Source of the DNA: Solirubrobacter pauli
Lineage (GTDB): Bacteria; Actinomycetota; Thermoleophilia; Solirubrobacterales; Solirubrobacteraceae
Direction of reading: 5' to 3'
Assembly: GCF_003633755.1 (NCBI RefSeq)
Contig: NZ_RBIL01000002.1
Span: forward strand, 806,001 to 870,000
DNA: 64,000 bases
The number at the start of each line of letters is the position of its first letter. Position 1 is the first letter of the stretch. The notes under the pieces were generated by a model. The model did not search any database. It had not been told where the DNA came from and was given only the letters and a program-made list of their open reading frames with translations. Of the stretch, positions 8,097 to 43,500 are shown one piece after another. A program made the translations under genes and the position numbers.

Positions 8097-8128
8097 GCGG
8101 TCGAGATGCCCTGAGCCGGGCGGTTTCA

Positions 8129-8134
8129 TACCCT
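8129..8134 (+). promoter_or_regulatory. candidate -10 box (TACCCT) of the ankyrin gene
   Basis: TACCCT lies 7 nt before the GTG at 8142, and there is no ribosome binding site. This is consistent with a leaderless transcript but is weak evidence taken alone. Confidence 0.25.
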
Positions 8135-8141
8135 CTCGCGC

Positions 8142-8747: not shown

Positions 8748-8756
8748 ACGGGGCGC

Positions 8757-9416: not shown

Positions 9417-9490
9417 CCAGGCACACGTCCCATCCGTGTGACGACCGCAGCGCTGGACGATGGTCCAGGGCGGCGAGCCGGTGAAGCACT

Positions 9491-9513
9491 TAGCGTTCCC
9501 GCACAGAACGCTA
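9491..9513 (+). promoter_or_regulatory. 8-bp perfect inverted repeat overlapping the RTX-gene promoter
   Basis: TAGCGTTC at 9491-9498 and GAACGCTA at 9506-9513 are perfect inverted repeats with a 7-nt spacer. The right arm runs into TATGTT (9512-9517), a good -10 candidate, and the left arm falls where the -35 would sit. A repressor site is the simplest reading; an mRNA hairpin is less likely because the repeat lies upstream of the predicted transcription start. Confidence 0.5.
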
Positions 9514-9560
9514 TGTTCGCCGTGTCAACAGCTACGGCGGACCCAATGAGAGGACGAGCC

Positions 9561-10583: not shown

Positions 10584-10589
10584 CGTGCG

Positions 10590-10625
10590 GGGTGGGGCGG
10601 CGCCCGGCCGGGCGCCGCCCCACCC
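10590..10625. terminator. 18-bp perfect palindrome, bidirectional terminator
   Basis: Bases 10590-10607 pair perfectly with 10608-10625, as a GC-only stem apart from one A/T pair. It lies exactly between the convergent stops at 10583 (+) and 10628 (-). There is no T-tract, as for the other terminator-like hairpins in this window. Confidence 0.75.
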
Positions 10626-10627
10626 GC

Positions 10628-26177: not shown

Positions 26178-27656
26178 ATGGCGATCGTCGAGCACGAACC
26201 CGTCACCCCGACCACGACCGAGGAGCCGGAGACCCACCACGGCACGCTGATCCCGCGCGGCCAGGACGCGGTGCCACGCTCACCGCTCTTCGAGGGTCGC
26301 TTCGGACGGATGTTCCGCTCGCTGCCCGCCCCGCGTCACGACCGCGAGGCGCTGATCGCGCTCGGCAAGGCGATGGCCGACCGCGAGGCGCCGAGCGGTG
26401 ACAACCCGAAGATCCCGTCGGCGTACACGTACTTCGGGCAGTTCGTCGACCACGACATCACGTTCGACCCGCTCTCGGAGCTGAGCAAGTTCAACGACCC
26501 GGACGCGCTGACGAACTTCCGCTCGCCGCGCTTCGACCTGGACTCGCTGTACGGCTCCGGGCCGAGCGGCAGCCCGTTCCTGTACGAGAGCAAGAAGGCG
26601 GACCGGCGCGGCGTGCGGCTGCTCGAGGGCCGCAACACGGACCCCGAGCTCGAGCGCCGCGACCTGATGCGCAACGCCCAGGGCCGCGCGATCATCCCGG
26701 ACCCGCGCAACGACGAGAACATCATCGTCTCGCAGCTGCACCACGCGTTCATCCGCTTCCACAACAACGTGGTCGAGCACGTCGCCAAGGCGCAGCCCAC
26801 GCTCGCCGGTCCGGCGCTGTTCGCCGAGGCGCGGCGCGTCGTCACCTGGCACTACCAGTGGGTCGTCGTCCACGACTTCCTCCCGCGGATCATCGGAGAC
26901 GACCTCGCGAACGAGCTGCTGCCGGACTCCGGCGAGCCGAACCTGCGCTTCTTCGACCCGCGCGAGGGGCCGTTCATCCCGGTCGAGTTCTCGGGCGCCG
27001 CGTACCGCTACGGGCACAGCCAGGTGCGGCCGAGCTACGACCTCAACGACATCGTGGTCGGCGTGCCGCTGTTCTCGGCCGCCAAGACGGCCGACCGGGA
27101 CATCCTCGCGCACCTGAACGGCTTCCGGCCGCTGCCGGCGCTGTGGACGATCGACTGGCGCCACTTCGTCGAGATCGACGGCTCCCAGCCGCAGCTCACG
27201 CGTGAGATCGACACCCAGCTCGCGAAGCCGCTGCTCAAGCTGCCGACCGGGATCGACGCCGCGCACACGGGGCTGCCGGTGCTCAACCTGCGCCGCGGCA
27301 AGGCGCTCCAGCTGCCGTCCGGGCAGGCGGTCGCGCAAGCGATCGGCGCCCCGCCGGTGAGCAACCTCGGGCTGGACCGCTTCAACCTGTCGGCGGAGCA
27401 TCGCGCGGCGCTGGAGGCCGAGACCCCGCTCTGGTACTACGTGCTGCGCGAGGCCGAGAACGCGCCGCGCAACGGCCAGCGGCTCGGGCCGGTCGGCGGG
27501 CGGATCGTCGGCGAGGTGCTCGTCGGCCTGCTCGCCCACGACCCGCAGAGCTTCCTGCGCCAGCAGCCGACGTGGAAGCCGACCGGGCTCAAGGCGGTCA
27601 AGGCCGGGCACTTCACGCTCGGCGACCTGTTGCGGTTCGCCACCATCGGCCAGTGA
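26178..27656 (+). CDS. Animal-type heme peroxidase (peroxinectin-like)
   Basis: A 492-residue protein of the peroxidase-cyclooxygenase superfamily. The distal region reads TYFGQFVDHDITFDP (about 84-98) with the catalytic His. The heme-binding helix motif is NENIIVSQLHHAFIRFHN-like (DENIIVSQLHHAF), and the proximal His is in AYRYGHSQVRP. It uses H2O2 to oxidise halides, phenols or other donors. Unlike most secreted relatives it has no signal peptide, so it may be cytosolic or released by lysis. The ATG at 26178 is preceded by AAGGAG. The adjacent multicopper oxidase suggests a joint oxidative role. Confidence 0.93.
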   Translation: MAIVEHEPVTPTTTEEPETHHGTLIPRGQDAVPRSPLFEGRFGRMFRSLPAPRHDREALIALGKAMADREAPSGDNPKIPSAYTYFGQFVDHDITFDPLSELSKFNDPDALTNFRSPRFDLDSLYGSGPSGSPFLYESKKADRRGVRLLEGRNTDPELERRDLMRNAQGRAIIPDPRNDENIIVSQLHHAFIRFHNNVVEHVAKAQPTLAGPALFAEARRVVTWHYQWVVVHDFLPRIIGDDLANELLPDSGEPNLRFFDPREGPFIPVEFSGAAYRYGHSQVRPSYDLNDIVVGVPLFSAAKTADRDILAHLNGFRPLPALWTIDWRHFVEIDGSQPQLTREIDTQLAKPLLKLPTGIDAAHTGLPVLNLRRGKALQLPSGQAVAQAIGAPPVSNLGLDRFNLSAEHRAALEAETPLWYYVLREAENAPRNGQRLGPVGGRIVGEVLVGLLAHDPQSFLRQQPTWKPTGLKAVKAGHFTLGDLLRFATIGQ

Positions 27657-27676
27657 TTTCGGTCAGCACGACGACA

Positions 27677-27691
27677 GACCGCTAAGCGGTC
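27677..27691. promoter_or_regulatory. 7-bp perfect inverted repeat upstream of the LmbU-family gene
   Basis: GACCGCT-A-AGCGGTC is a perfect inverted repeat with a 1-nt centre. It lies 20 bp after the peroxidase stop and about 72 bp before the LmbU-type start. It could be an operator for that regulator, or a small part of the terminator region. Confidence 0.4.
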
Positions 27692-27702
27692 CGAAGGTCT
27701 CC

Positions 27703-27723
27703 GGGCGCGGTTTCGCCGCGCCC
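27703..27723 (+). terminator. 8-bp GC hairpin after the peroxidase gene
   Basis: GGGCGCGG (27703-27710) pairs with CCGCGCCC (27716-27723) around the loop TTTCG. It lies 46 bp after the peroxidase stop, with no T-tract. Confidence 0.5.
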
Positions 27724-27763
27724 GTTGACAGCACGAAACGGCGTCGGCCACCATCGGGACCTG

Positions 27764-28327
27764 ATGCACGCGGATGTCATGACGCCGCCGCGGGCGGCGA
27801 GCCTCGAGCTCCGCTCCTCGATGACGTTCGACGAATGGGCCGGCGTGGGCGAGCGGATCGCCCGCATCGCGAGCGGCGCCGCATGGGCGCTGGGGGAGTG
27901 GCTGCTGTTCGGCGAGCGCCGGTTCGGCGCCCGCTACCGCTCCGCGATCGAGGCCACGGACCTCGACTACCAAACCCTGCGCAACTACGCGTGGGTCGCG
28001 CGCAGCGTCGACGCCGGCCGCCGGCGCGAGGAGCTGAGCTTCCAGCACCACGCGGAGGTCGCGTCGCTGCCCGGCCCGGAGCAGGACCTGTGGCTGCATC
28101 GTGCCCAGATGCACGGCTGGTCGCGCAACGAGCTGCGCCGGCGGATGCGGGCCGACCGGCACGGCGAGCGCGTCCAGCCGGCGACCGTGGTGCGCGTCGA
28201 GGTCAGCTCGGACGTCGCCGACCGCTGGCGGCGCGCGGCCGAGGCGGCCGACCAGGCGCTGTCCGAGTGGGTGCGCGCGGTCACCACCGCCGCGGCCGAC
28301 GCGACGCTGCCGCCGCCCGGCCGCTGA
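27764..28327 (+). CDS. LmbU-family transcriptional regulator
   Basis: A 187-residue protein matching the LmbU family, named for the lincomycin cluster activator. Diagnostic phrases are MTFDEWAGVGERIARIASGAAW split around ALGEWLLFGE, then DYQTLRNYAWVARSV, LSFQHHAEVASLPGPEQ and GWSRNELRRRMR. These regulators bind DNA through a helix-turn-helix and normally control secondary-metabolite genes, often as cluster-situated activators. No biosynthetic cluster is present here, so its targets are unknown; the oxidase/peroxidase pair or the lysis cassette are neighbours only. The ATG at 27764 was chosen as the first after the terminator; an ATG at 27779 is possible. Confidence 0.9.
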   Translation: MHADVMTPPRAASLELRSSMTFDEWAGVGERIARIASGAAWALGEWLLFGERRFGARYRSAIEATDLDYQTLRNYAWVARSVDAGRRREELSFQHHAEVASLPGPEQDLWLHRAQMHGWSRNELRRRMRADRHGERVQPATVVRVEVSSDVADRWRRAAEAADQALSEWVRAVTTAAADATLPPPGR

Positions 28328-28335
28328 TCCGCAGT

Positions 28336-28363
28336 GGCGTGTCCCGCCGCGGCGGGACACGCC
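28336..28363. terminator. 28-bp perfect palindrome, bidirectional terminator
   Basis: Bases 28336-28349 pair perfectly with 28350-28363. It fills the gap between the convergent stops of the LmbU-type gene (28327) and the endolysin gene (28370). Confidence 0.75.
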
Positions 28364-28369
28364 GGCGGG

Positions 28370-30574
28370 TCAACCGCGCCAGGTGCGCCGGCCGCCCAGC
28401 GTCTTGTCGAAGTCGCAGTGGATGAAGTAGCCACGGCCCTTCGCGTAGTAGCCGACGCCGCACTCGAACGCCTGCTTGGCGTGCTCGTGATGGCGGTCGA
28501 GAGAGACCCCGGGCGGCGGCGGGACATCGACGGCGAACCCGCGCGTGTGGGCGGAGTTCGGCTCGCCGCCGACCGAGCGGTTGTAGACCTTGGTGCGGAA
28601 GGCCGAGTTGATCACCAGCCGCTTGCCGCCGTCGAGCTTGCGCAGGTGCTCCAGTCGCCGGGCCAGCCCTTTCGCCCGCTGGCGCGCCTCCTGCTTGCTG
28701 AGTCCCTGCTCGCGCATCAGCCCGCTGACGTACGACGTGTGGTCGCGGTCCTTGCACGCGAGCTCGCTCAGGTTGAAGTTCGGCGTCAGCTGGCCGGGGA
28801 TCGCGCGCCACGCCGGCGTGGCGCGCACCGCGCGCTTGGCGGTGCTGTCGGTCGGCCAGTGCGGCTGCAGCAGCTGCATGAGGTCGCCGTCGAGCTCGCC
28901 GTCGACCGGCTGCCCGGCGACCCGCTGCGCGGCGCGTACGCCCTGCTCCCACACCCCGGTCGCCAGGGTGCGGCGCCCGGGGGCGCGGGCGTCACGGCGC
29001 AGCCGCTTGCGCAGCTCGAGGTCCGGGTCGCCCTGCGCCTTCAGGTAGCGGGCCAAGGCGATCTTCGACCGGCGTACGAGCGTTGCCTTGTCGCCGCGCC
29101 GGGTCACGACGGACCGGCCGCCCTGCGCGCCGCCCGGCACCGGCTCCGGCTTGGCGCTCGGCACCGGCCGGCGGGTCGGGACGGTGCCGTTCGTCCGGGC
29201 GGGCGGGTGCCGCTGGTCGCGCACCGGCGGGACCTTCGGGTGCCGCGGGTGCCGCAGGCGGAGCGCGACGAGCTCGGCCTCGGCGTCCTCGTAGCGCTCG
29301 ATCAGCTCGGCGCGGGCGCGACGGGCCATCCGGTCCAGCAGCGCGATCCGCTGCACGAGCTCCGCGTGGTCGAGCTCGGTCAGCGCACGGCGTCTGGGAA
29401 GCGCCGGCGCGGGGGCGACGGTGGCCGCGGACACCGCCGTCGCCACGGAGGCCGCCGTGGCGCCGACGCTGATCGGCGGCGGCGCGGGCGCGACGTCGAT
29501 CACCGGTGGTGGGCTGTCGGTGAGCAGCTCGTTCTGGCGCTGCTCGAGCGTCACCAGGACGCCGAGCTTGGCCTCGATCCGCGCGAGCGCGTCGGCGAGC
29601 GTGTCAGGAGCGGCGCCGTTCGAGGATGCCGACGGCACCGCCGGCCGCGCCTGCTCTCGCTCGAGCACCTCACGCAGCCGCCCGCCGTGCGCGAGCAGCT
29701 CTGCCCACGCGCGGTCCGAGAGCGCCGCGCGGCGCTCGAAGTGGTTCACCACCTCCGCGAGCCCGGGCTTGGGCGTGGGCTTGCCGGGCGTCGGCTTGGT
29801 CGTCGGCGCCCGCTTGCGGCGGGCCTTCTCGGCGCGCGTGGCGCGGTCGAGCGTGCGCAGCGTCTCCGCGGCCGCCACGCCGGTGCCCTTGAGCCCGTGC
29901 TGGCGTTGGAAGCGCTTGAGCGCGAGCTCGGTCTCGGCGTCGAACGTGGTCCGCTTGCGGTCGAGGTAGCCCGCGCGGGTCTTCGCGTCGCGCACGAACG
30001 CGAGCCTCCGGGTGAGGACGAGGACGGCGTGGCCCGTGTCCCCGCGCCGCAGGGACGCCTCCGGCGCGGGTGGCCGGGCGCCCGACAGCGTCTGGTGCCA
30101 GCGGCGGGCGCGGGCGCGCACGTCGCGGCTGTAGACCTCGGCCGCCTCGCCGGTGCCGTTGTAACGGCGGATGCCGTCCGGCTCGCCGTGGGCGCGCATC
30201 AGCTTGACGAGGTTGCGGAAGCCGATGCGCATGTTCAAGCGCGGGTCCCAGCATCCGCCCTCGGCGTCCGCCTCGTCCTGCCACTCCCACCACGTCAGCT
30301 GCACGGGACCGACGCCCTGCATCCGGCGCCGGCCGCGCTCGGCGTCCCGCTGGCGCTTGTAGTCGAGGTACTTCTCGCGCGTCACCTTGCCGGCGCCCGC
30401 GAAGATCGTGCCCCGGTCGTGCCCGAACACGTTCTGCCCGCCGGAGCTCTCCTTCTCGAGGATCGCGCAGGCGAGCGAGAGCCGCAGCCCTTCACGCTTG
30501 GCCTCCTCGATCACGAGCTCGGGGTTGAGGATCTTGCCGGCGCGCAGCCGGTCGACCTGGGTGGCCGTCGCCAT
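28370..30574 (-). CDS. Large endolysin-like peptidoglycan hydrolase (transglycosylase-like plus M15 peptidase)
   Basis: A 734-residue cell-wall hydrolase with no signal peptide. The N-terminal domain (about 1-170) looks like a lysozyme/transglycosylase fold with the catalytic-type phrase AILEKESSGGQNVFG. A peptidoglycan-binding-like segment (about 185-245, LALKRFQRQHGLKGTG) and a long Pro/Ala-rich, partly coiled-coil linker follow. The C-terminal ~130 residues are an M15-type D-Ala-D-Ala peptidase with NSAFRTKVYN, SAHTRGFAVDV and FIHCDFD, giving the His/Asp/His zinc set. Its ATG shares one base with the holin stop. That, plus the lack of an export signal, points to holin-dependent release. 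No other phage gene is nearby. Confidence 0.85.
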   Translation of the reverse strand: MATATQVDRLRAGKILNPELVIEEAKREGLRLSLACAILEKESSGGQNVFGHDRGTIFAGAGKVTREKYLDYKRQRDAERGRRRMQGVGPVQLTWWEWQDEADAEGGCWDPRLNMRIGFRNLVKLMRAHGEPDGIRRYNGTGEAAEVYSRDVRARARRWHQTLSGARPPAPEASLRRGDTGHAVLVLTRRLAFVRDAKTRAGYLDRKRTTFDAETELALKRFQRQHGLKGTGVAAAETLRTLDRATRAEKARRKRAPTTKPTPGKPTPKPGLAEVVNHFERRAALSDRAWAELLAHGGRLREVLEREQARPAVPSASSNGAAPDTLADALARIEAKLGVLVTLEQRQNELLTDSPPPVIDVAPAPPPISVGATAASVATAVSAATVAPAPALPRRRALTELDHAELVQRIALLDRMARRARAELIERYEDAEAELVALRLRHPRHPKVPPVRDQRHPPARTNGTVPTRRPVPSAKPEPVPGGAQGGRSVVTRRGDKATLVRRSKIALARYLKAQGDPDLELRKRLRRDARAPGRRTLATGVWEQGVRAAQRVAGQPVDGELDGDLMQLLQPHWPTDSTAKRAVRATPAWRAIPGQLTPNFNLSELACKDRDHTSYVSGLMREQGLSKQEARQRAKGLARRLEHLRKLDGGKRLVINSAFRTKVYNRSVGGEPNSAHTRGFAVDVPPPPGVSLDRHHEHAKQAFECGVGYYAKGRGYFIHCDFDKTLGGRRTWRG

Positions 30575-30957
30575 CACGCCACCCCGGCCGGCTGCTCGTC
30601 GCCGGCCTCGAGCGCGAGGGTGGCGTCCTCGTCGGCGTCGTCGAAGTCGATGTCCCAGTCCTCGTCCTCGTCCTCGTCCTCGCCGAGATCCGGCTGGGGC
30701 GCGACGGCGGCCGTGGCGTCGTCGCTGGCCTGCGCCGCCACGACGGCCACGGCTTCGCGCGCCTCGAACTTCTGCCAGCCGTGCAGCCAGTGCAAGGCGG
30801 GGGCGAGCACGGCGACGGCGCCGGCGATGAAGATCTCCTGCAGCGTGTCCTCGGGGATCGTCACGCCGGGGAAGTGCTCCGCGAGCCAGGTGGCGCAGGC
30901 GCCGGCGGCGAGTGCGAAGACGGGGGTCAGCAGAGCGACGAGGCGGTTGAGCGGCAT
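30574..30957 (-). CDS. Holin-like small membrane protein
   Basis: A 127-residue protein with two hydrophobic segments (about 6-27 and 43-61) separated by a short loop, and a C-terminal tail that is extremely acidic (GEDEDEDEDWDIDFDDADED). Size, topology and direct coupling to an endolysin gene match phage holins, which open the membrane to let the lysin reach the wall. The acidic tail is unusual, since holin tails are normally basic; it could neutralise the pore or bind a regulator. GGAGGG lies 8 nt before the ATG. Confidence 0.75.
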   Translation of the reverse strand: MPLNRLVALLTPVFALAAGACATWLAEHFPGVTIPEDTLQEIFIAGAVAVLAPALHWLHGWQKFEAREAVAVVAAQASDDATAAVAPQPDLGEDEDEDEDWDIDFDDADEDATLALEAGDEQPAGVA

Positions 30958-30974
30958 TGACAGCGCCCTCCGTA

Positions 30975-31009
30975 GCGGGATGAGGTCCTGGTCGTGGGGA
31001 CCATCCCGC
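30975..31009 (-). terminator. Long hairpin after the sigma/anti-sigma operon
   Basis: Two stem blocks pair: GCGGGAT (30975-30981) with ATCCCGC (31003-31009), and GGTCC (30984-30988) with GGACC (30998-31002), with a 2-nt bulge and a 9-nt loop. It lies 20 bp downstream of the minus-strand stop at 31029 and just upstream of the holin gene. Confidence 0.6.
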
Positions 31010-31028
31010 GCACGGGAGGCGAGGGCAA

Positions 31029-31775
31029 CTACCTTCGTTCAGGTTGGTCGAGGTCGAGGTCGCTGAGCGGGGTCCGTCCGTCGAAGACGAGCAGCCAGGC
31101 GCCGCCGCGGACCGGCTTGATCGGCCGTCGCTCGCCGGTCGATCGCACGACGAACGTCCCGGCCTCGGCGGGCTTGCGGGTGCGCCCGTAGATGAGCAGC
31201 CGCGGCGGCGTGCTGTCGATCCGCATGGAGGAGCTGACCCCATCGCCGCGGAGCAGGCAGACGCCGGGGCGAAGGTCGCTGAAGCGGTGGAACACGCCGT
31301 TGCGCTCGAGCCCGAGCTGGTTGCCGCGCAGCTGGCCGGCGATGACGCAGCGGTTCCCGGCGCCCGACGTGTAGATCGCCACGCCGTAGGAGACCTTGCG
31401 CTCTCGATCGGGTGCCGTGGCCACGAGTTCGATCTGCGCTCCGTCGGCCAGGGTCATCTTCGGGTCGCCGATCTCCAGCCCGGGGTTGGGTTGGATCGGC
31501 TCCCCGGAGGAGATCAGGCCCGTGCCGTCCGCGACGGCCGCCGCGCCGAGCAGGGCGACCACCACGAACCCCGCGGTCCGTAGCCGCCGTCCACGGCGCC
31601 GGCGCTCGCGCCGCGCCACGACGGCACCGCCGTGATCGCGAATCGCGGCCGCGACCAGCGCGTCCCGCAGCGCGGTCTGCGCCGTGCGTGCGGGGTCGGG
31701 CTCGCGCTCGGCGGCGGCGACGAGCTGGTCGCGGACGCTGTGCTGCGCGGCCCGCGGATCGTCGGGCGCGCTCAC
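31029..31775 (-). CDS. Membrane protein, candidate anti-sigma factor
   Basis: A 248-residue single-pass protein: a charged N-terminal cytoplasmic part (about 1-68, ending RRERRRRGRR), one membrane helix (about 69-88) and an extracellular beta-rich domain of about 160 residues with paired cysteines. Its start overlaps the ECF sigma-factor stop by 4 bp. Position and topology suggest an anti-sigma factor or sensor for that sigma. The zinc-binding HxxxCxxC of ZAS anti-sigmas is absent, so the call rests on context. Confidence 0.6.
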   Translation of the reverse strand: MSAPDDPRAAQHSVRDQLVAAAEREPDPARTAQTALRDALVAAAIRDHGGAVVARRERRRRGRRLRTAGFVVVALLGAAAVADGTGLISSGEPIQPNPGLEIGDPKMTLADGAQIELVATAPDRERKVSYGVAIYTSGAGNRCVIAGQLRGNQLGLERNGVFHRFSDLRPGVCLLRGDGVSSSMRIDSTPPRLLIYGRTRKPAEAGTFVVRSTGERRPIKPVRGGAWLLVFDGRTPLSDLDLDQPERR

Positions 31776-32377
31776 GCGATCTCCTCCACGGCGTCGTCGT
31801 GGACCGGCGGCGGCAGCGCCACGGCCAACGCCCGCAGGCCGCGGGAGACGCGGGCGCGTGCCGTCGGCTCGGAGACGCCCAACGCCGCCGCCAAGTCCGT
31901 GTAGGAAAAGTCCTCCACTACACGAAGCTCAACTGCGCGACGCTGTTCGTCGGGAAGGCCGCGCATCGCCTCGAGCAGTGGCTCCTCGAGCGCGTTGAGG
32001 CCGGTCAGCGACTCGATCCGGTCGTGCTCGAGCGCGCTCAGCGGCGGGATGGTCACGCTGAAGCGCTCGAGCGCCGCCCGCTCGACCCGTCCGGACCGCC
32101 AGTAATGGGACAGCTCGGTGCGGGCGATCGCATACAGCCAGGCCTGCTCCTCGGCTGCGCTTGACCCGCGGAACTGCATCCGCCGCTCGAGCGCCTTGGC
32201 GAACGTCTCCGACAGCAGGTCGAACGCGACCTCGGGATCGAGCACGCGCCGGGCGATGAAGCGCAGGATCCGATCCGCGTACGCGTCGTAGAAGGCGGAG
32301 AAAGCGCTCGGGTCTTCCTGCGCGTCGACGAGCAGGCTGTCCGAGGCTCGTTTGAGGAGACGAAGCCGGGGCCGCAC
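31772..32377 (-). CDS. ECF-family RNA polymerase sigma factor
   Basis: A 201-residue sigma-70 family protein with only regions 2 and 4. Region 2 covers about 20-95 (FSAFYDAYADRILRFIARR, LLSETFAKALERR, AWLYAIARTEL). Region 4 covers about 130-190 (LPDEQRRAVELRVVEDFSY, LAAALGVSEPTARARVSRG). It directs RNA polymerase to a small regulon, probably in response to an envelope signal sensed through the coupled membrane protein. It starts at GTG, with TAGGCT ending 10 nt upstream. It is divergent from a pair of small secreted-protein genes, which are plausible targets. Confidence 0.92.
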   Translation of the reverse strand: MRPRLRLLKRASDSLLVDAQEDPSAFSAFYDAYADRILRFIARRVLDPEVAFDLLSETFAKALERRMQFRGSSAAEEQAWLYAIARTELSHYWRSGRVERAALERFSVTIPPLSALEHDRIESLTGLNALEEPLLEAMRGLPDEQRRAVELRVVEDFSYTDLAAALGVSEPTARARVSRGLRALAVALPPPVHDDAVEEIA

Positions 32378-32387
32378 TGGGCTATCG

Positions 32388-32393
32388 AGCCTA
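32388..32393 (-). promoter_or_regulatory. candidate -10 box (TAGGCT) of the ECF sigma gene
   Basis: Read on the minus strand, TAGGCT ends 10 nt before the GTG at 32377. No Shine-Dalgarno sequence is present, so the transcript may be leaderless. Confidence 0.35.
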
Positions 32394-32430
32394 GTTCATC
32401 GCCCTCGCCGCGAACGCGAAGGACTCGATT

Positions 32431-32454
32431 CCGGGCGGTCACAAAACCGCCCGG
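32431..32454. promoter_or_regulatory. 9-bp perfect inverted repeat between divergent operons
   Basis: CCGGGCGGT (32431-32439) and ACCGCCCGG (32446-32454) flank a 6-nt spacer CACAAA. It sits midway between the sigma gene and the secreted-protein pair. It could be an operator controlling both, or an attenuator in the leader of the rightward genes. Confidence 0.45.
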
Positions 32455-32516
32455 GTGCGGGTCATAACGGTCCGCCGGAGCGCGCACCGGTCCTACTCAA
32501 CGCGAAAGGACTCTCC

Positions 32517-32924
32517 ATGGACCGACGCTCTCGCAGGGCAGGCGGACGCCTGCGCGCGATGGCTCTCGCCGTGGCGCTCGCCGGCCTCGTGCTGCCGGCC
32601 GCCGCCACGGCCCAAGTGCCCTCCGACCTCACCGACTGGAATCTGACCGAGACGACCAGCACCTGGGGCAGCACCTACAGCGTCAGCTCGAGCGGAGGTG
32701 GCCCCGTGCAGTACCGCTGGCTCGACACGCCCGCCAAGGCGACCGTGATCTCGGGCAACACCTGCTCCGACCTGGCGCTCGTGGGCAGCGCGACGATCGG
32801 CGTCAACGACACGAGCTACAAGCTCCTGTTCAGCACCTGGGCCGGGTACTGCTTCCGCCTGCGCGGACGCACGACGAGCGGCTCGGGCTCGATGGTCAAC
32901 CACGACGGACGGGTGCTGCGATGA
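32517..32924 (+). CDS. Small secreted protein of unknown function (135 aa)
   Basis: Signal peptide (about 1-32, ending AAATAQ) followed by about 100 mature residues rich in Ser, Thr and Gly, with two cysteines in the pattern NTC...YCF that could form a disulfide. The phrase LTDWNLTETTSTWGSTY suggests a beta-sandwich, but I recognise no family. AAAGGA lies 6 nt before the ATG. Its stop overlaps the next start by 4 bp, so the two proteins are made together. It lies divergent from the ECF sigma gene. Confidence 0.7.
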   Translation: MDRRSRRAGGRLRAMALAVALAGLVLPAAATAQVPSDLTDWNLTETTSTWGSTYSVSSSGGGPVQYRWLDTPAKATVISGNTCSDLALVGSATIGVNDTSYKLLFSTWAGYCFRLRGRTTSGSGSMVNHDGRVLR

Positions 32925-33493
32925 AGACCGTGCTCGCCATCGGCCTGGTGCTCGTCGCCGGGCTGCTGTACCTCACCATCCCGCGCGCCGAGTCGGCGAC
33001 CGGCGCGCCGACGAGCCTGCAGAGCGCCGAGGTGCTCGAGCGCTCCTCCGAGCTGACGGCCGCCGCGGCCCCTGGCCGCTTCGGCGCCGGCACGGTCGTC
33101 GCGGCCCCTGCCGCCCGCGGCCTTGCGGACGGGCTCGCGGACGACGTCCCGCTTCCGCAGGGCGGCTCGTTCGACGGCATCCAGTGGGAAGCCGCGGGTG
33201 GCGCGTTCTCGGCGGCCGAGACCCGCGCGATCCTGCAGTACAACGCGATGTGCCAGTGGGTCCGTGCCTACCGCGACGGTCGCCAGACCGACGTGAGCGG
33301 CCGCATCCTCGGGGAGGTGCCGAGCTGGTCGGCCTGGCGCGGCGCCGAGACGGGCGCGGCCCTGGGCACGGCCATCGCGGAGCTGCTGGGTGGCGGCGGC
33401 TCGGCTTCCGCCGGGCTGCTGCGCGAGTGCGACGCCTCACACGAGCGTGAGGTGCGCTACGCCGAAGCGCGAGGGCTCGACCCGAGCCGCTGA
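32921..33493 (+). CDS. Secreted or membrane-anchored protein of unknown function (190 aa)
   Basis: An N-terminal hydrophobic segment (about 2-20) acts as a signal peptide or anchor. A low-complexity Ala-rich stretch follows, then a compact helical region containing TRAILQYNAMCQWVRAYRDGR and a C-terminal Cys. No family is recognised. It overlaps the upstream secreted-protein gene by 4 bp. A strong hairpin terminator follows directly. Confidence 0.65.
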   Translation: MKTVLAIGLVLVAGLLYLTIPRAESATGAPTSLQSAEVLERSSELTAAAAPGRFGAGTVVAAPAARGLADGLADDVPLPQGGSFDGIQWEAAGGAFSAAETRAILQYNAMCQWVRAYRDGRQTDVSGRILGEVPSWSAWRGAETGAALGTAIAELLGGGGSASAGLLRECDASHEREVRYAEARGLDPSR

Positions 33494-33501
33494 GGGACAC
33501 G

Positions 33502-33532
33502 GTGGTCCGGCGCCGTCGCGGCGCCGGACCAC
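33502..33532. terminator. 13-bp perfect hairpin, bidirectional terminator
   Basis: GTGGTCCGGCGCC (33502-33514) pairs perfectly with GGCGCCGGACCAC (33520-33532) around a 5-nt loop. It lies between the convergent stops at 33493 and 33540. Confidence 0.75.
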
Positions 33533-33539
33533 GTGCGAC

Positions 33540-36146
33540 TTACGGGTTCGTCGTGCTCAGCGTGAAGGTGAGCGTCTTCGTGTACGCGCCGGTGCGCAGC
33601 GCGTCGTTGGCCTTGATGGCCTGGGTGAACAGCACCTGCACCTCGTCGTTGGAGACCGGAGCCGTCCACGACGTCTTCGAGAGCGCCACGCGCAGCGGCT
33701 CGGGCAGCGAGAACGCCCCGTTGGTCAGGTGGCCGGGATCGGACACCGACAGCGCCGCGTCGCCGGCCGTCGAGATGACGTTGGCGGTCGTGGACGTCGT
33801 GTACTCGGCCGCCGTGCCCGGCACGAACGTGCCGAACGACGCCGGCGTGCCGAGCGTCAGGCTCAGCGTGGCCGCGACGGTGCCGCCCGGGTTGGAGGGC
33901 TGGTCGACGCCGTAGTCCGAGCAGCCGCCGCTCGAGTCGTAGAAGCCGCCGCCGGCGAGCCCGGGGCCCGTGATCTGCGGGCGGTTGCCGGCCGCGGGCG
34001 AGCCCGTGTACGACGTGTCCCACCACTGCTTGAAGAACGCGTCGAGCTTGTTCGCGCAGCCCTTGGACTGGTTCGGCATCCAACGGTGGAAGATCGCGAT
34101 CTCCTGCTCCGGCGTGATCGCGCCGTAGCGGAAGTCGGTCTGGATCTGCTGGCTGGCCTTGCTGAAGTTCTCCGGCCCGAGGATCGCGCGCAGGGCCGTG
34201 TACGAGAGGCCCGGACGCGTGTACGTGTTCGCGGTGGAGAACAGGTTGCCCGTCGTCGGGTTGTTCGGCGCGACGTTCCAGAACGACGTCGAGGTGGTCG
34301 CGTAGCGCGAGTTGAAGCGGCTGACGATGCTCGCCTCATAGGCCGCCTTGTAGGCGTCCGAGCCCTCCGGGCCGGTGGCCAGGCCGGCGTTGCGGGCGAT
34401 GAACATGTACTCCGAGAAGTCCGCGTAGCCCTCCTTGAAGAACGTGTACTTCGGCTGGGCGTAGCTGACCGCGTCGCCCCACCACTGGTGCATGTTCTCG
34501 TGGCTGAAGGTCTGCGCGTTGGACCCGATCGAGCCGCCGACGAAGACGATCTTCGTCTGCATCTCCTCCTCGAAGGAGGCGCTGGGCAGCGCGACGACGA
34601 TGCCGTTCGCGTTGAACTGGAACGGGCCGTTCACCGACTCCTGGAAGTGGGTGATGTCCTCCTGCATGTCCATGATGGCCTTGTTGGACGCCTTGCGCGT
34701 GGCCGTGATGTTGGCCGACTGGTACTGGTAGTAGATGACGTCGCCGGCGGTCGCCATGCGCTGGCTCGCGTCGAAGTGGCCGACGCTGTTCTCCACCAGG
34801 TAGGACGCGATCGGCTCGGCCGAGTGCCAGTTGAACGTGCGCGAGCCGCCGGTGGGGTAGTTCGCGTCGGGCTCGTTGACGACGGTGCTGACCAGGCGGC
34901 CCGGGCCGATGAAGACGCGGTTGGCCTCCGGTGCGAGCGCCGGGTCGTAGTTGACGGTCGAGTGCACGTCGTAGGTCGGCTTGACCGACGCCTGGTTGTT
35001 GAGCGGCATCCAGGCCATCGAGCCGGACGGCTCGTTGGTGACCATCGCGCCGTCACCGACCGGGCTGTTGTTGCGGAACCACCCCTCGCTCCCGAGCGAC
35101 GGGTTCGAGCGGATCCCCGGCTGGCCCGTGTAGTTGATGACGACCTTGAAGGTCGCTCCGCTGGCGATCGGCTGTGCGGGCGTGATCACGAGCTTGGTGT
35201 CGCCGCACTGCGCGCCCTGGCTCGCGGCCTGGTTGTTGATCGGCGCGCACGCGGGCGGGTTCGGGTTCGTCGCGCTGACCGGGTTGGTGTTCGACGCGGC
35301 GTGCGCGAGCGGGTCCGGGTCGTCCCAGCCCTTCGGGTCGCCCGCGTAGGTCGGCTGCTTGTGCGCGAACGTCGCCGGGACGCCGTCGATCGTGATCGAG
35401 GAGATCGTCATGTCCGGACCCGGCGTGGTGGCCGTGGAGGAGACGTTGTTCTTGCGGTCGAAGTCGAGGCTGAACTCCGTCAGGCACTGCGTGGCCTTCT
35501 GGGTCAGCTCGACGTGGTTGCCCGGCAGGAACTTGTTCGTGACGGCGTCGTAGACGGTGACGACGTCGGTGTGGATCGACGTGTAGCCGCCGTTGCCGAG
35601 CTCCGGCCAGACGCGGTTGCCCGGCTGGGACAGCGTGCGGGCGCCCGGCCCGCAGTCGGCGGCCTGGGACGCCTTGGCGCGCGCCGTGCCGTTCTGCTGC
35701 TCGAACGCCTTCGTGGCGGACCTGCCCTGGACAGGATCGCCGCCCTTGACCTTCAGATCGGCGGCGCTGGTGGCGCAGCCGAGCTCGCCGGCGTCCGCTC
35801 CGCCCTGCGGCGCGCAGGCGGCGACGTAGTACGTGCCCTTGGCGAGCTTGGGCAGCTTGACGCCGACCAGGAAGCGCTTGGTGGCGTGCGCGGCGACGTC
35901 CACCTTGGCCGCGCCGATCAGCGCGCCGCCCGTCCGGCGGCGCAGCACGCGCACCTTGACGTCGGCGGTGGCGGCGTGGTCGGTGTCGTTGGTCACGACA
36001 CCGGCGAGCGTGCCGGCGCTCGCACCGGCGGGCAGCGAGCTGAGCTGCGTGACCCCGACGCCGGCGGCGTGCGCGGCCGGCGCGCCGGCGAGTACCGCCA
36101 GCGTGACTAAAGACGCGCCCCCAGCGCGCCTGAAGCGTCCATTCAT
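33540..36146 (-). CDS. Secreted M1-family (gluzincin) metallopeptidase with C-terminal TFTLSTT module
   Basis: An 868-residue exported peptidase with a signal peptide (about 1-27, ending APAAHA). A CARDB-like domain (about 28-115) precedes the M1 region. The zinc site is complete: His549-Glu-x-x-His553 in HENMHQWWGD, and the third ligand Glu572 in FKEGYADF, exactly 18 residues after His553. The exopeptidase GxMEN motif is replaced by SASFEEEMQ. The last ~115 residues (33540-33890) are a beta-rich module ending TLTFTLSTTNP, shared with the GH10 and GH67 enzymes at the right end of the window. The ATG at 36146 follows GAGGGG and starts the signal peptide. Confidence 0.9.
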   Translation of the reverse strand: MNGRFRRAGGASLVTLAVLAGAPAAHAAGVGVTQLSSLPAGASAGTLAGVVTNDTDHAATADVKVRVLRRRTGGALIGAAKVDVAAHATKRFLVGVKLPKLAKGTYYVAACAPQGGADAGELGCATSAADLKVKGGDPVQGRSATKAFEQQNGTARAKASQAADCGPGARTLSQPGNRVWPELGNGGYTSIHTDVVTVYDAVTNKFLPGNHVELTQKATQCLTEFSLDFDRKNNVSSTATTPGPDMTISSITIDGVPATFAHKQPTYAGDPKGWDDPDPLAHAASNTNPVSATNPNPPACAPINNQAASQGAQCGDTKLVITPAQPIASGATFKVVINYTGQPGIRSNPSLGSEGWFRNNSPVGDGAMVTNEPSGSMAWMPLNNQASVKPTYDVHSTVNYDPALAPEANRVFIGPGRLVSTVVNEPDANYPTGGSRTFNWHSAEPIASYLVENSVGHFDASQRMATAGDVIYYQYQSANITATRKASNKAIMDMQEDITHFQESVNGPFQFNANGIVVALPSASFEEEMQTKIVFVGGSIGSNAQTFSHENMHQWWGDAVSYAQPKYTFFKEGYADFSEYMFIARNAGLATGPEGSDAYKAAYEASIVSRFNSRYATTSTSFWNVAPNNPTTGNLFSTANTYTRPGLSYTALRAILGPENFSKASQQIQTDFRYGAITPEQEIAIFHRWMPNQSKGCANKLDAFFKQWWDTSYTGSPAAGNRPQITGPGLAGGGFYDSSGGCSDYGVDQPSNPGGTVAATLSLTLGTPASFGTFVPGTAAEYTTSTTANVISTAGDAALSVSDPGHLTNGAFSLPEPLRVALSKTSWTAPVSNDEVQVLFTQAIKANDALRTGAYTKTLTFTLSTTNP

Positions 36147-37568: not shown

Positions 37569-40500
37569 ATGGTCGCTTCTACGGCGCGTCGGGTCGTTCG
37601 CTGGTGGCTGCCCGGATACGGGTCAGTCGACGAGAGTCCTTCCCGCGTTGCCGTGGTGGCTACCGGTTTGGTCGCCGCGTTGTGCGCGGCGGTCGCTGTA
37701 GGCCTCCCGCTCGGCTCGCTGCTCGGCGAGGCCGGCACAAGCTCCACCGCGGCCGACACGTCGGCACCGCCGTTGAGAGCATCCTCGGCGAGCGCCTTCG
37801 CGGATCTTGCTCCTTCGGCCGCGGTGACCGCGGTACAGGCGGACTTCGGAGCGGCCATGAGCGCACGGGCCACGACCGCGGCGCCGCTCGCGATCGGGCG
37901 TCCGGCGACCACCGAGGCCGGCGACGGGCGCGCGCTGCCGGTCGTCAAGAGCGCTCCGGCCACCTCGGCGGTCGCGACGGGCAAGGCGGCGCCGATCGAC
38001 CTGCGCTGGCGCGGCGGCTCGCGGGGTGGCTTCGCGCTCGCCAACCCGCCGGCCGAGGTGCGCGTCGGAGCGACCGCAACGGACGGCGCCACGTTCGTCG
38101 GCACGGGCGTCGCCTTCGCACCGCATGGCGCCGCCGACGTCCGCGGCCGGCACGTCGACGCGACCGTCTTCTTCGCCAACGTGCAGCGCGACACGGACTA
38201 CCTCGTCGCGCCGCGCGGCGGCGGCCTCGAGGCCATGTGGGCGCTGCGCAGCTCCGCGAGCCCGGAGCGGCTGGTGTTGGACTACCGGCTCGGCGCGGGG
38301 TCTTCGCTGCGCACTTCGCAGGACCCGGATCTCGCCGCGGTCGTCGTCCGCGGCGGCAAGACCGTCGCGATGACGAGCGCCGTGGTCGCGTTCGATGCGG
38401 ACCGCCGGCCCGTGCCGGTCACGACCTCGGTCGTGGGGGACCGGCTGGTGGTCGAGGTCGACCACCGTGGCCGTGACCTGCGCTACCCGCTGCTGGTCGA
38501 CCCGACGACGTACACCTGGGCGTCCGGGACGTCCAGCGAGCACTGGGCGTTCGCTTCGGTCGGCGAGTGGGGGTCCGGGCCCATCTCCACGACCCTCGAG
38601 ATCGCCACGATCAATGAGACGGCGACCGGCGACTGGGCCGAGTGGACCTACACGGCTCCAGGGACCGGATACGTCATCTCGCTCGACGGTGGCGTCGTCT
38701 CGGACTACATGCTCCCCGGCGTGTCCGACAGCTCGGTCGGGCTGCGGCGCAGCAACGGTGTGTGGGCGGTGCCGCCGGTGCAGACAGACGGCATCTACGG
38801 GGAGTACGACGCGGTGCAGGTCTGCCTGGTCTCCTCCTGCGGCGAGCCGGCCGCGGGCGACTCCCCGACCAACGCGCTGAGCTACTTCTCCGGCACGCAG
38901 GCCGTCTTCCGCGTCGATCAGCAGCAGGACAACTCCGACACCCTCAACGACGGTTGGGAGACGGGCGACGCCACGCTCGTCCTCGACGACCCCGAAGTGC
39001 CGACGCTCTCGAACGTCATCACCGGCGCGTCCGGCACGGGCACGACGCGCACGGCGTCGGCGACCGTGACCGACCCCGGGTTGGGGCCGGTCAGGCTCGA
39101 GGTGCTCAAGGACAACGTCGTCGTCAGCACCGTCAACCGCTCGTGCGTGCCCGAGGCCGGCGCCTGCACGGGCACCTGGTCGCCGTCGATCAACTACAGC
39201 CTGAGCGGCACGTCCCAGGGCTCGACCGCGACGTTCGGGCTCCGGGCCTACGACGCCGCCGGCCACGTGTCGACGACCACGTCCTGGACGGTCAACACCG
39301 ACACCGAGGCTCCGACCCTGACCCTCGGCGGTTCGGTCAACAACCCGGTGAGCGGCGGTTGGGACCTGGCCATCAGCGGCAACGACGGCTCCGGCAGCGG
39401 CGTCAAGCGCGTGCACATCAGCGTGGACGGCGTCGCCCAGACGCCGACGGTCGTGTCCTGCCCGAGCAGCTGCCCCCAGTTCTACTCGACGTCCTTCGTG
39501 CTGGATCGGCAGCTGTACTCGGAGGGCCTGCACGCGATCTCGGTGCGCCTCGAGGACGCGGTCGGCAACCTCTCGGCGCCGCAGACGCGGAACGTCTACC
39601 TGATCCACGAGGACGGCTTCGACCGCGCCCAGCTCGGCCTGGAGAACTACTTCGCGTACGAGAGCACGCCGACGGGCGCCGGCACCGCCGCGCACGTCAA
39701 CGCCGCCAACGGCAACCTCGTCTGGCACTCGACGCCGATCGTCAACCCCGGTCGGGGCCTGTCGAGCGTGGTCAACCTGACCTACAACTCGCTCGACCGT
39801 GGCGGGTACGTCAACTCGCTGATCCGCGACGGCGGCACCGCGGTCGTGGGGCAGACGACCAACCAGAGCCGTTGGCTCGGTGGGCTGGCCTACGGCGAGG
39901 TCGGCGTCGGGTTCTCGCTGGGCATCTCCGGCCTGACGCGCCTGAACGAGCCGCTGCGCCGGATCTCCGGCGGGAGCCTGGACGAGCCGCAGCTGATCAT
40001 GCTCACCGACGTCGACGGCACCGTGCACACCTTCAGCCGCGACGGCACGACGTCCCGCTACAACCCCCCGGCCGGCGTCGAGCTGGCGTTCCGCCTGCAC
40101 TCGACGAGCGACCCCGCCCGCCGGTACGCGGCCACCCGCCCGGACGGCGTGACGTTCTACTTCGACACCGACGGCTACCAGACGTTCATCACGGATCGCA
40201 ACGGCAACTCGATCCGCTTCGACTACGAGAAGTACTCCAAGGTCACGGGCAACGTCTCGGACTGCAACGGCAGCCCGTCCGCGAACCTGCTGTGCAGCAA
40301 GCGCGTGATCCGCGTGGTGGACGCGTACGGCGTCCAGCACGGCGGCGCCGAGGTCGACAAGCGCTCGATCAAGATCACCTACAAGTCCGGCCCGGTGCTC
40401 CCGATCGGCTCCCTCACGCCCGACGCCGTCGCGCTCACCGGCTCGGTCGGCGGGCGCCCGGACAAGATCGCGCGGATCGTCGACCACGCCGGCCGCGTGA

Positions 40501-43500
40501 CCGACTTCGGCTACGACGGCAACGGCTACCTGACGACGCTCACCCAGGGCGAGGTGCTCAACCCGGGCGGCCCGTCGAACACCGACCACGTCCGCACCAC
40601 CACCTTCACCTACGCGGGCAGCGGCGTGAACCGCCAGCTGGCGAGCGTGGTCGACCCCCGCGGCCACGACACGACGTTCAACTACGAGACCGCGGCCGCC
40701 CCGGGCCCGACCGGCGTCAAGAGCTTCGGCCAGCGCGCGCTCGGCGCGACCAACCGCCGCGACAACGCGACCACGTTCGCCTATGGCACCAACACCTTCA
40801 CCGCGACCGCACCGGGCGCGGTGGACACCACGTACCTGACCGACTCGGTCGGCCGCGTCCAGGAGATCACGGACGAGCTGGGCACGCTCACCGAGCTCGA
40901 CTGGTCCAACGACAACTACATGACGCGGTACAAGACCGCGGCCAACTTCTCCGCCCAGGCGGCTGAGACGGAGATCACCTACACCCGCCTCGGCGACCCG
41001 CTGACGATCACCGACCCGCTGGACCGCGTCACGACGCTCTCCTACCGCTTCGGCACGGAGGCGGGACCGACGAACGGCGGCCTCGACGACGGCACCCAGT
41101 ACGTCACCGACCTCACGTCGATGCGCCGCCCGGCTCGCGGGAACATCGCGCTCTTCCCGGCGCCGACCGTGACGTTCGGCCTCGACAACGCCGGCAACGT
41201 CACCAGCCGCACCTACGCCGGCCTGGCCCCGGCCGAGACCAACTACGGCAGCTACGGCCTCGTCAACTGGGAAGAGGACGAGCACGACAACCGCACGAGC
41301 TACTCGAGCCACGACGCCAACGGCGATCCGACCGTCGTCGTCGATGCGCGCCAGAACGCGGGCGAGAGCGGCTACGACGGCACCTGGCGCTACAGCTACG
41401 ACCCGGTGGGCAACCTCCTGGCGGTCACCGACCCGCGCGGCGGGACGTCGGCCACGCCGGGGGAGCCCTACACCACCTCCTTCGTCTATGACCCGTTCGA
41501 CCGCGTCGTCGAGTCGTGGACGCCGAAGTGCACCGGTCCTCTCGCAACACCGCAGAACCCAGGAGGCTGCCAGTCCGAGCAGTGGATCCAGCGCTTGACG
41601 GAGTACGACCCCAACGGCAATCCCACGCAGAGCACGGACGGAGAAGACGAGCAGACCGACCGGGAGTTCTCGGCGATGGACGCCGTGACGGTCGAGCTGG
41701 CGCCGGCCGTCAACCACTACGGCGAGCAGGACCCGGCGCGCGAGAAGACGACGTACGACTACGACGCGCGAGAGAACATCACGCTGGTGACGTCGCCTGA
41801 GGGCAACCAGTCCGAGGGGGTCGCCGGCGACCACGCCACCGCCTACGAGTACGACCTCATCGACCGCCTCGTGGTCGAGCAGCGCCAGGAGCGCGGTAGC
41901 GCGACGAGCAACCTGATCACGTCGTACGCCTACGACCGGCGGGACAACGTCATCGGCGTGAGCGATCCGCTGTTGAACAAGAGCGGCGACCCGAAGGCGA
42001 ACGCCGCGACGAGCAGCAAGCAGCGCTGGGCGTACGCCTACGACCTCGCCGACAACCGCGTCGACGCGACGGAGAACCCTGACGGCAGCGGCGGTGTCCC
42101 CGCGCTGCGTACGCACACGACGTACGACGCGAACGACAACGTCCAGACGATGGTGTCCCCGCGCGGGATGACGGTCAGTGGCCCGAACGCCAGCGCGGCG
42201 CTCTTCACGACGAGCTATGTGCACGACGTCCACGACGACGTGATCTCGATGACCCGCGGCGGCCAGCGGACGACCGCGTACGCCCGCCGTGACGACGGTC
42301 AGATCACGGCCATAACGTCGCCGCGAGGCGTGGCCAGCACGACTGTCGTCGGGGATTTCCAGACCCAGTACACCTACGACGCCAACGGCGATGTCGCCAG
42401 CGTCACCCTGCCGCGCGCACCGGGGCAGGTCCCCAGCCGGGCCGCGAAGATCAAGTACGGCCGCAACGCCGTCGGCGATCCCGTCGACGTCAAGGACCCG
42501 CGCGGCAACGACGAGGGCGGTGCGCCCGCTCCGCCTGAGCACTACTTCTCCAACCGGTTCTACGACACGGGCGAGCTCCGCTGGACGGACCGGCCGTCCT
42601 GGTGGACGGTGGAGCTCGGGGCGGCGATGGAGGTGCGCGAGCGCACCCCGGACGAGTGGATCCTGTTCGACGGCAGCCAGCCGGCGCTCCCGACGGGGCC
42701 GGGCGACTTCGGCAAGGTGACCGGGATGCCGCTCCCGGAGTTGCTGCCGAGGTCCGGCGGCACGGACGTCCGCTACGACGAGGAAATGCGGCTCGAGAGC
42801 GTGGTCGACGTCGCGGGCAAGGTGGTCGACCTCCAACGTGACGCGCTCGGACGCGTCAAGGCCGTCGAATACCCGTACAAGGCTGACAACGCGCAGACGC
42901 CGGCGAACGACCCGGTCCGCATCACGAACCGGCTCGGCTACGACCGCAACGGAAACCTCGTGATGACCGAGGACGGCGAGGAGCACCGGACGGTCACGCA
43001 GTTCGACCAGTTCGACCGCTGGATTCAGCGCACAGCGCCCGGCGCGGCGCCCGACGGCGGAGCGCCCACGGGCTCGGGCCCCAGCACGTTCGAGGACGAG
43101 GTGACCGAGGCCACCTGGGACGAGAACGGCAACCAGACCACGTACGAGAACGCTCGGCACAAGACCACTTCGAGGACCTACGACCCGGTCGACCGCCTCC
43201 AGAGCGCGACCGATCCCCTGGGCCACGTCACCACCTACGGCTACGACGCGGACGGCAACGAGACGTGCGTGCGGACGCCACGGGGCAACACCTCCATCTC
43301 GCGCGATTGCGCGGCCGGCGACTTCGCGACGACGTCCGCATACAACGAGTTCGACGAGCTCGCGACGGTCACCCAGCAGGCCGACTACACGGGCGAGAGC
43401 GATCAGGTCATCACCACCACCTACGCGTACGACCTGGATGGCAACCAGATCACGGTGACCGCGCCGGGGGCCCGTCGCGGACCCGACGGCGACATCCGCG

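What the first reader, a model, noticed from the sequence alone, without database searches (positions are those of the whole stretch)
28370..30957. Holin-endolysin cassette without a prophage
A holin-like gene with a strongly acidic tail overlaps a 734-residue endolysin with two catalytic domains and a long linker. No capsid, tail, integrase or terminase gene is nearby; neighbours are an LmbU-type regulator and an ECF sigma operon. A domesticated lysis cassette could release cytosolic proteins. The adjacent peroxidase and the metzincin lack signal peptides, so lysis-mediated release is a testable idea.
Basis: partly seen in the sequence, partly recalled or inferred. Interest (0 to 1): 0.6.

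Follow-up and report, generated by a model that had tools for sequence, protein, structure and literature searches.

The report
Host-kept phage-type lysis gene pair
A soil bacterium carries an intact, phage-derived pair of genes for bursting its own cell, with no phage around it, and the membrane half of the pair has relatives inside gene clusters for syringe-like injection particles, so it may let the cell release such particles or other contents.

Summary
At 28370-30957 (-) a two-helix holin-like protein (127 aa, very acidic tail) overlaps by 1 nt a 734-aa endolysin without signal peptide (lytic-transglycosylase fold, PG-binding domain, linker, M15 peptidase). The genome is a Solirubrobacter. 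S. phytolaccae keeps the same order (lysin 79-81% identical) without phage genes; dN/dS is 0.34-0.39, so the pair is maintained. Three further Solirubrobacter genomes carry one mosaic lysin each beside a small acidic membrane or holin-like protein, at unrelated sites. Lysozyme domain and holin have relatives in uncultivated siphophages: a phage lysis cassette by origin. New here: a holin profile found two further family members, both inside contractile-injection-system (CIS) clusters next to lysins. All 7 genus genomes encode CIS sheaths; the own CIS sits on another contig. Best reading: a domesticated lysis cassette, working like type 10 secretion, downstream of an ECF sigma/putative anti-sigma pair, lysing some cells to release cytosolic cargo. 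CIS particles are the most interesting cargo candidate, unproven; release of the neighbouring peroxidase and metzincin has no specific support. New variant of a known kind.

The parts
28370..30574 (-). Endolysin, 734 aa, no signal peptide
30080..30574 (-). N-terminal lytic-transglycosylase-fold domain (residues 1-165; E40 and E42 invariant in 7 sequences)
29840..30055 (-). PG_binding_1 region of the lysin (about residues 174-245)
29105..29827 (-). Long variable linker (about residues 250-490; 72% identical to S. phytolaccae against 81-92% for the other segments)
28412..28780 (-). Peptidase M15_3 domain (residues 599-721; H676, D683, H719)
30574..30957 (-). Holin-like protein, 127 aa, two hydrophobic segments (residues 6-24, 42-60)
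30595..30684 (-). Acidic tail of the holin (residues 92-121, 18 of 30 D/E)
31029..31775 (-). 248-aa membrane protein, putative anti-sigma factor (inferred from position and overlap with the sigma gene)
31772..32377 (-). ECF sigma factor
32474..32493 (+). Conserved motif between the sigma gene and the divergent genes; not present in front of the holin gene
27764..28327 (+). LmbU-family regulator, convergent neighbour, conserved in S. phytolaccae; link to the cassette not shown

Best explanation
This is a host-maintained (domesticated) holin-endolysin lysis cassette of phage origin. SHOWN by sequence: an intact, overlapping gene pair, phage homologs, no phage structural genes in the scanned neighbourhood, conservation in place between two species under purifying selection, and relatives of the holin inside CIS gene clusters. 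INFERRED mechanism: the genes are transcribed from the ECF sigma operon or from a promoter just in front of the holin gene; the holin accumulates in the membrane, its acidic tail probably delaying or gating it; when it triggers, the signal-less lysin passes through, cuts glycan strands (N-domain) and stem peptides (M15), and the cell bursts. In a monoderm no spanin is needed. In a subset of cells this would release cytosolic contents, as type 10 lytic cassettes do. Candidate cargo, clearly less certain: the CIS particles encoded elsewhere in the same genome.
For: Intact pair. Same order and flanks in S. phytolaccae. dN/dS 0.39 lysin, 0.34 holin, within the 0.13-0.43 range of the 9 genes compared. 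Phage origin: M15-holin-lysozyme row in contig L015 and related lysozyme domains in L020 and L022, contigs that also encode tape-measure, portal or head proteins. Holin-profile hits outside the profile's own rows: 2, G005:C3 (E 6.3e-15) and G122 (E 1.5e-14), both inside CIS clusters beside GH24/GH25/M15 lysins. Sheath family in 7 of 7 genus genomes. T10SS cassettes release proteins by lysis (PMC10847048, abstract and passages); the Afp eCIS cluster has an upstream endopeptidase-holin-lysozyme cassette (PMC12961389, passages).
Against: No expression or lysis data. Only 2 of 7 genus genomes have the full-length lysin ortholog, and the holin profile is silent in G001, G002 and G004, so the cassette is not a genus core. 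Eight other loci have a related sigma gene, seven of them with the membrane-protein partner, without this cassette, so sigma control is inferred from position only; the conserved motif near the sigma gene is not in front of the holin. The own CIS cluster encodes its own CHAP + NlpC/P60 protein, and family members outside the genus have sheath genes without this lysozyme domain, so the CIS need not depend on it. dS may be underestimated at such high G+C.
Confidence: 0.62

Rival explanations
1. Prophage remnant: the last surviving piece of a decayed prophage, without function, drifting.
For: Holin and lysozyme domain are homologous to siphophage proteins; phage-like domain swapping among the lysins.
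Against: Both genes intact, catalytic residues kept, dN/dS 0.34-0.39 like the neighbours, same place in two species with no phage gene in either, no HK97-type portal in 7 of 7 genus genomes.
Confidence: 0.13
2. Non-lytic wall remodelling or stress operon: the ECF sigma operon recruits the pair for controlled peptidoglycan turnover, the small protein acting as a gated carrier or membrane anchor rather than a lethal holin.
For: Placement after an ECF sigma and membrane protein; a different signal-less CHAP hydrolase follows the related sigma pair in G002; the acidic tail is confined to the unlinked copies and could restrain the pore; non-lytic holin transport is argued for other systems (PMC9527704, passages).
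Against: Related sigma pairs mostly lack any such hydrolase nearby; two catalytic domains in one signal-less lysin, as in lysis enzymes; holin kin sit in phage and CIS lysis modules.
Confidence: 0.17
3. The cassette releases its neighbours, the peroxidase and metzincin.
For: Both lack an N-terminal hydrophobic segment; peroxidase and LmbU genes keep their place beside the cassette in S. phytolaccae.
Against: No close peroxidase ortholog in the genomes with other cassettes; opposite strands, no shared promoter sign; neighbouring M1 and Rhs proteins carry N-terminal hydrophobic segments and need no lysis.
Confidence: 0.08

Closest known systems
Type 10 secretion / lytic cassettes (Serratia ChiWXYZ, Yersinia entomophaga YenLC)
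   Same: Holin plus peptidoglycan hydrolase outside a prophage, among transcription-factor genes, apart from its cargo genes in one case and embedded in cargo operons in others (PMC10847048, passages).
   Different: Monoderm actinobacterium, no spanins recognised, a holin matching no described family, acidic tail, two catalytic domains in one lysin, cargo unknown.
Lysis cassette of the Afp eCIS and of R-tailocins
   Same: Holin and lysins that serve a contractile particle; the nearest non-phage holin relatives here lie inside CIS clusters (PMC12961389 and PMC10598620, passages).
   Different: In the window the cassette is unlinked: G000 contig C2, CIS sheath on contig C1.
Siphophage lysis genes of IMG/VR contig IMGVR_UViG_3300036851_000525 (L015)
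   Same: Holin and lysozyme genes overlap by 4 nt with an M15-type gene just upstream; holin 38% over 39 aa (E 5e-4), lysozyme 50%.
   Different: Separate single-domain enzymes without long linker, short holin tail, surrounded by phage tail genes.
Clostridioides difficile tcdR-tcdE region
   Same: An alternative sigma factor and a holin-family protein in one locus (PMC6200909 and PMC10223161, abstract starts in listings).
   Different: No sequence relation was tested; likeness of layout only; the C. difficile endolysin is a remnant (recalled).

Membership tests
Holin-endolysin lysis cassette | Adjacent small protein with 1-4 TM segments and signal-less endolysin | tested here: met
Holin-endolysin lysis cassette | Lytic activity on co-expression | not testable with these tools
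   needs bench work
Type 10 secretion system | Holin and peptidoglycan hydrolase outside a prophage, kept by the host | tested here: met
Type 10 secretion system | Spanin genes (part of the described diderm systems) | tested here: not met
   no spanin family among the proteins scanned around the cassette; not expected in a monoderm, so it may work like one but is not filed as a member
Type 10 secretion system | Release of a specific cargo | not testable with these tools
   no expression or secretome data
CIS-linked lysis module | Holin homologous to holins encoded in CIS clusters | tested here: met
CIS-linked lysis module | Located in the CIS gene cluster | tested here: not met
   cassette on G000:C2, sheath on G000:C1
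Prophage remnant | Phage structural, packaging or integration genes in the locus or in relatives' loci | tested here: not met
   20 window proteins by PHROGs, 17 by Pfam, gene order in S. phytolaccae, portal PF04860 in 0 of 7 genomes
ECF sigma/anti-sigma regulon | Cassette transcribed by or under the ECF sigma factor | tested here: inconclusive
   same strand and 71-nt gap only; conserved motif absent in front of the holin

The most novel reading that the evidence does not exclude
Solirubrobacter uses an unlinked, ECF-sigma-controlled holin-lysin cassette, with an acid-tailed holin of a family shared with CIS clusters, as the release or self-lysis module for its genus-wide contractile injection system: a type-10-like lytic route in an actinobacterium whose release genes have been separated from the particle genes and whose lysins exchange catalytic domains as phage lysins do.
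Probability: 0.22. Interest if true: 0.75.

Novelty: new variant of a known kind. Interest (0 to 1): 0.5.

Why it matters
How contractile injection systems of monoderm bacteria leave, or kill, the producing cell is open: the Streptomyces paper PMC10066040 proposes effector-driven lysis, and its text holds neither 'holin' nor 'endolysin' (term search). A host-kept holin-lysin pair whose holin family also sits inside CIS clusters gives a gene pair that can be deleted to test this. It also extends domesticated lysis cassettes to an actinobacterium and shows lysin domain shuffling among chromosomal copies.

Tried and rejected
Conserved RNA hairpin in front of the holin gene: the 79-nt stretch folds better than shuffles in the window (z -2.86), but not in S. 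phytolaccae (z -0.14) or at the G006 holin (z 0.84); rejected as a conserved feature.

A shared sigma-dependent promoter motif: the conserved 20-mer near the sigma gene is found once in the window and not in front of the holin gene. No sigma-70 promoter or intrinsic terminator pattern in 27600-33600.

CIS effector leader motif in window proteins: none; it is in two own-CIS proteins and one protein near the G002 sigma locus. The motif was recalled, not taken from a call.

Defence system: no PADLOC match to lysin or holin.

Phage and plasmid collections: the N-domain and the G122 CIS holin give no match in 50,697 phage records; P0002 none in 72,556 plasmids; the whole lysin matched 180 phage records, all under 60% identity, and the 30 listed all covered the M15 region only, and one plasmid, again in that region. 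The full-length lysin and a holin alignment gave no relative in viral contigs.

PF16945 (one phage holin family) gave nothing in the own genome, but it rang in none of the control genomes either, so it says nothing.

The first structure prediction of the N-domain, without alignment, failed (pLDDT 40) and was not used; Foldseek against PDB gave no match under E 0.001, so the fold assignment rests on the second model, its viral matches and the VIA alignment.

Full report
WHERE. The window is part of a 7.1-Mb, 4-contig genome (G000:C2:806001-870000); the nearest named relative of the lysin is Solirubrobacter phytolaccae KCTC 29190, and seven genomes of the same genus, the own one included, were searched. 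G001 and G002 look nearly identical, so the genus sample is about six independent genomes.

THE PAIR. Lysin 28370-30574 (-), 734 aa, and holin-like protein 30574-30957 (-), 127 aa, overlap by one base. The lysin has an N-terminal domain of 165 aa without a Pfam match, PG_binding_1, a linker of about 240 aa, a further stretch and Peptidase_M15_3. With seven sequences the N-domain is predicted at pLDDT 89.9; the best solved relatives are lytic transglycosylases, Z 14.1 to MltF (rmsd 4.1, 129 aligned), 13.4 (rmsd 2.8, 125 aligned) and 12.5 (rmsd 2.4, 121 aligned) to soluble ones, and the best viral one an endolysin-like protein of a siphovirus, E 8.7e-7. E40 and E42 are invariant in 7 of 7 sequences; E42 in the E-S motif is the likely acid (recalled motif). 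The M15 zinc pattern (recalled) is complete: H676, D683, H719. No signal peptide: the lysin needs a holin or lysis to reach the wall (inference).

THE HOLIN. Two hydrophobic segments, then a tail with 18 D/E and no K/R in 30 residues; net charge -24. The G003 and G006 relatives have 18 and 19 D/E in 30; the CIS-linked and phage relatives have 4-6. So the acidic tail belongs to the unlinked chromosomal copies. The small proteins beside the G004 and G005 lysins, not hit by the holin profile, have a hydrophobic segment and 8 and 13 D/E in 30. A gating role is inference.

SURROUNDINGS. Upstream on the same strand lie a 248-aa membrane protein and an ECF sigma factor that overlap by 4 nt; 71 nt separate them from the holin gene. 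Convergent is an LmbU-family regulator and beyond it a haem peroxidase. S. phytolaccae keeps peroxidase, LmbU, lysin, holin, membrane protein, sigma, two divergent genes, M1 peptidase and Rhs protein in this order. Pairwise dN/dS between the two species: lysin 0.39, holin 0.34, membrane protein 0.39, sigma 0.13, LmbU 0.22, peroxidase 0.20, the divergent genes 0.43 and 0.39, M1 0.24. The pair is thus maintained like its neighbours.

EMPTY SITES. Of the 11 best sigma hits in the genus, two are the cassette loci; eight more were read and one (G001, twin of G002) was not. None of the eight has this lysin or holin next to it; seven have a homolog of the 248-aa protein. One, in G002, has an ABM-like gene and then a different signal-less hydrolase (CHAP, 247 aa) after the pair. 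The sigma unit is therefore more widespread than its link to this cassette; two unlike hydrolases after related sigma pairs is suggestive, no more.

OTHER COPIES IN THE GENUS. P0001 matches 5 of 7 genomes: its own, G003, and partial matches in G004, G005 and G006. G004: 175-aa lysozyme-like protein, 160-aa membrane protein, 275-aa CHAP protein. G005: 536-aa lysin (lysozyme-like and M23) and a 138-aa acidic membrane protein. G006: 686-aa lysin (GH19, PG_binding_1, linker, further binding-like stretch) and a 132-aa holin 42% identical to P0002. Modules are shared crosswise: the N-domain in G000/G003/G004/G005, PG-binding plus linker in G000/G006, a second stretch in G004/G005/G006. Their neighbours are ordinary chromosomal genes and differ from site to site. 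The N-domain profile hits 4 of 101 family genomes, all in this genus.

PHAGE ORIGIN. The N-domain profile found 8 viral contigs; my gene caller recovered the domain in four of them (L015, L019, L020, L022). L015 has, in a row, an M15-type peptidase (by likeness to the CIS-linked VanY proteins; no Pfam hit of its own), a 76-aa protein homologous to P0002 (38% over 39 aa, E 5e-4) and a lysozyme-like protein 50% identical to the N-domain; L022 has a VanY domain and the lysozyme-like domain in one 301-aa protein. L015 and L022 encode tape-measure-like proteins, L020 a portal and a major head protein.

LINK TO CONTRACTILE INJECTION SYSTEMS. A profile of four holins (window, G003, G006, L015) hit 5 of 146 family genomes. 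Three hits are rows of the profile itself. The other two, G005:C3 (6.3e-15) and G122:C441 (1.5e-14), were unforeseen, and both lie in CIS clusters. In G122 a same-strand run goes from sheath, tube and ATPase through gp25 and DUF6519 to a VanY/M15-PG-binding protein, the holin (163 aa, 42% identical over 74 aa) and a GH25 lysozyme, with a DUF4280 gene on the other strand after it. In G005 two sheath genes and a baseplate region are followed, on the opposite strand, by one frame holding GH24, VanY/M15, PG-binding and the holin, then a GH25 lysozyme; that single frame may be real or an assembly artefact. Sheath PF04984 is present in 7 of 7 genus genomes and 21 of 101 family genomes, 17 over the cut-off. 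The own CIS (G000:C1) has eCIS_core, sheath, AAA, Tail_P2_I, two proteins with effector-like leaders and a large CHAP + NlpC/P60 protein, but no holin of this family. Portal PF04860 is in 0 of 7; other portal families were not tested.

READING. The pair is a phage-type lysis cassette now kept by the host. The described precedents are type 10 lytic cassettes, either standing apart among regulators or embedded in toxin operons, acting by lysis of a subset of cells (PMC10847048, abstract and passages), while others argue for non-lytic transport (PMC9527704, passages; PMC13284979, title and abstract start). eCIS release by holin and lysin, including a lysis cassette upstream of Afp, is described (PMC12961389 and PMC10598620, passages). 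What differs here is the monoderm host, the holin family, the acidic tail, the bi-catalytic mosaic lysins and the separation from the CIS. That CIS particles are the cargo is a hypothesis resting on holin kinship and co-presence; the own CIS hydrolase and the absence of this lysozyme domain in other sheath-bearing genera speak against strict dependence.

LITERATURE LIMITS. Eight searches of an open-access library (listings read) showed no paper on a Solirubrobacter lysis cassette or on this holin family; subscription papers are not covered.

Noticed in passing
G000:C1:1253000-1289000 (L066, L067, L083): A contractile injection system whose sheath is 86-95% identical in the six other genus genomes, with NfeD-like and PLD-like proteins bearing an effector-like leader, PASTA and CHAP + NlpC/P60 proteins.
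   Followed up: partly
window 37569-47033 (+): Very large Rhs-repeat protein (3154 aa) with pretoxin HINT and a weak GIY-YIG match at its end, and an N-terminal hydrophobic segment; a relative lies in the same place in S. phytolaccae.
   Followed up: no
window 33540-36146 (-) and 61350-63998 (-): About 115-150 residues are shared at 54-77% identity between these and several other, mostly signal-bearing, proteins in other Solirubrobacter loci; perhaps a surface-anchoring or sorting domain.
   Followed up: no
L051 (G002:C29) 7405-12960: A related ECF sigma/anti-sigma pair is followed by an ABM-like gene and a signal-less CHAP hydrolase; a 440-aa protein with the CIS effector-like leader lies about 2 kb away on the other side.
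   Followed up: partly
L081 4019-6046 (-), G005: Single open frame with GH24 lysozyme, VanY/M15 peptidase, PG-binding and a C-terminal holin domain: a possible lysin-holin fusion in a CIS cluster.
   Followed up: no
window 32517-32924 and 32921-33493 (+): Two small proteins with N-terminal hydrophobic segments, divergent from the sigma gene; one or both recur beside related sigma genes in G002, G005 and G006, with a conserved motif between: perhaps the true targets of this ECF sigma.
   Followed up: partly
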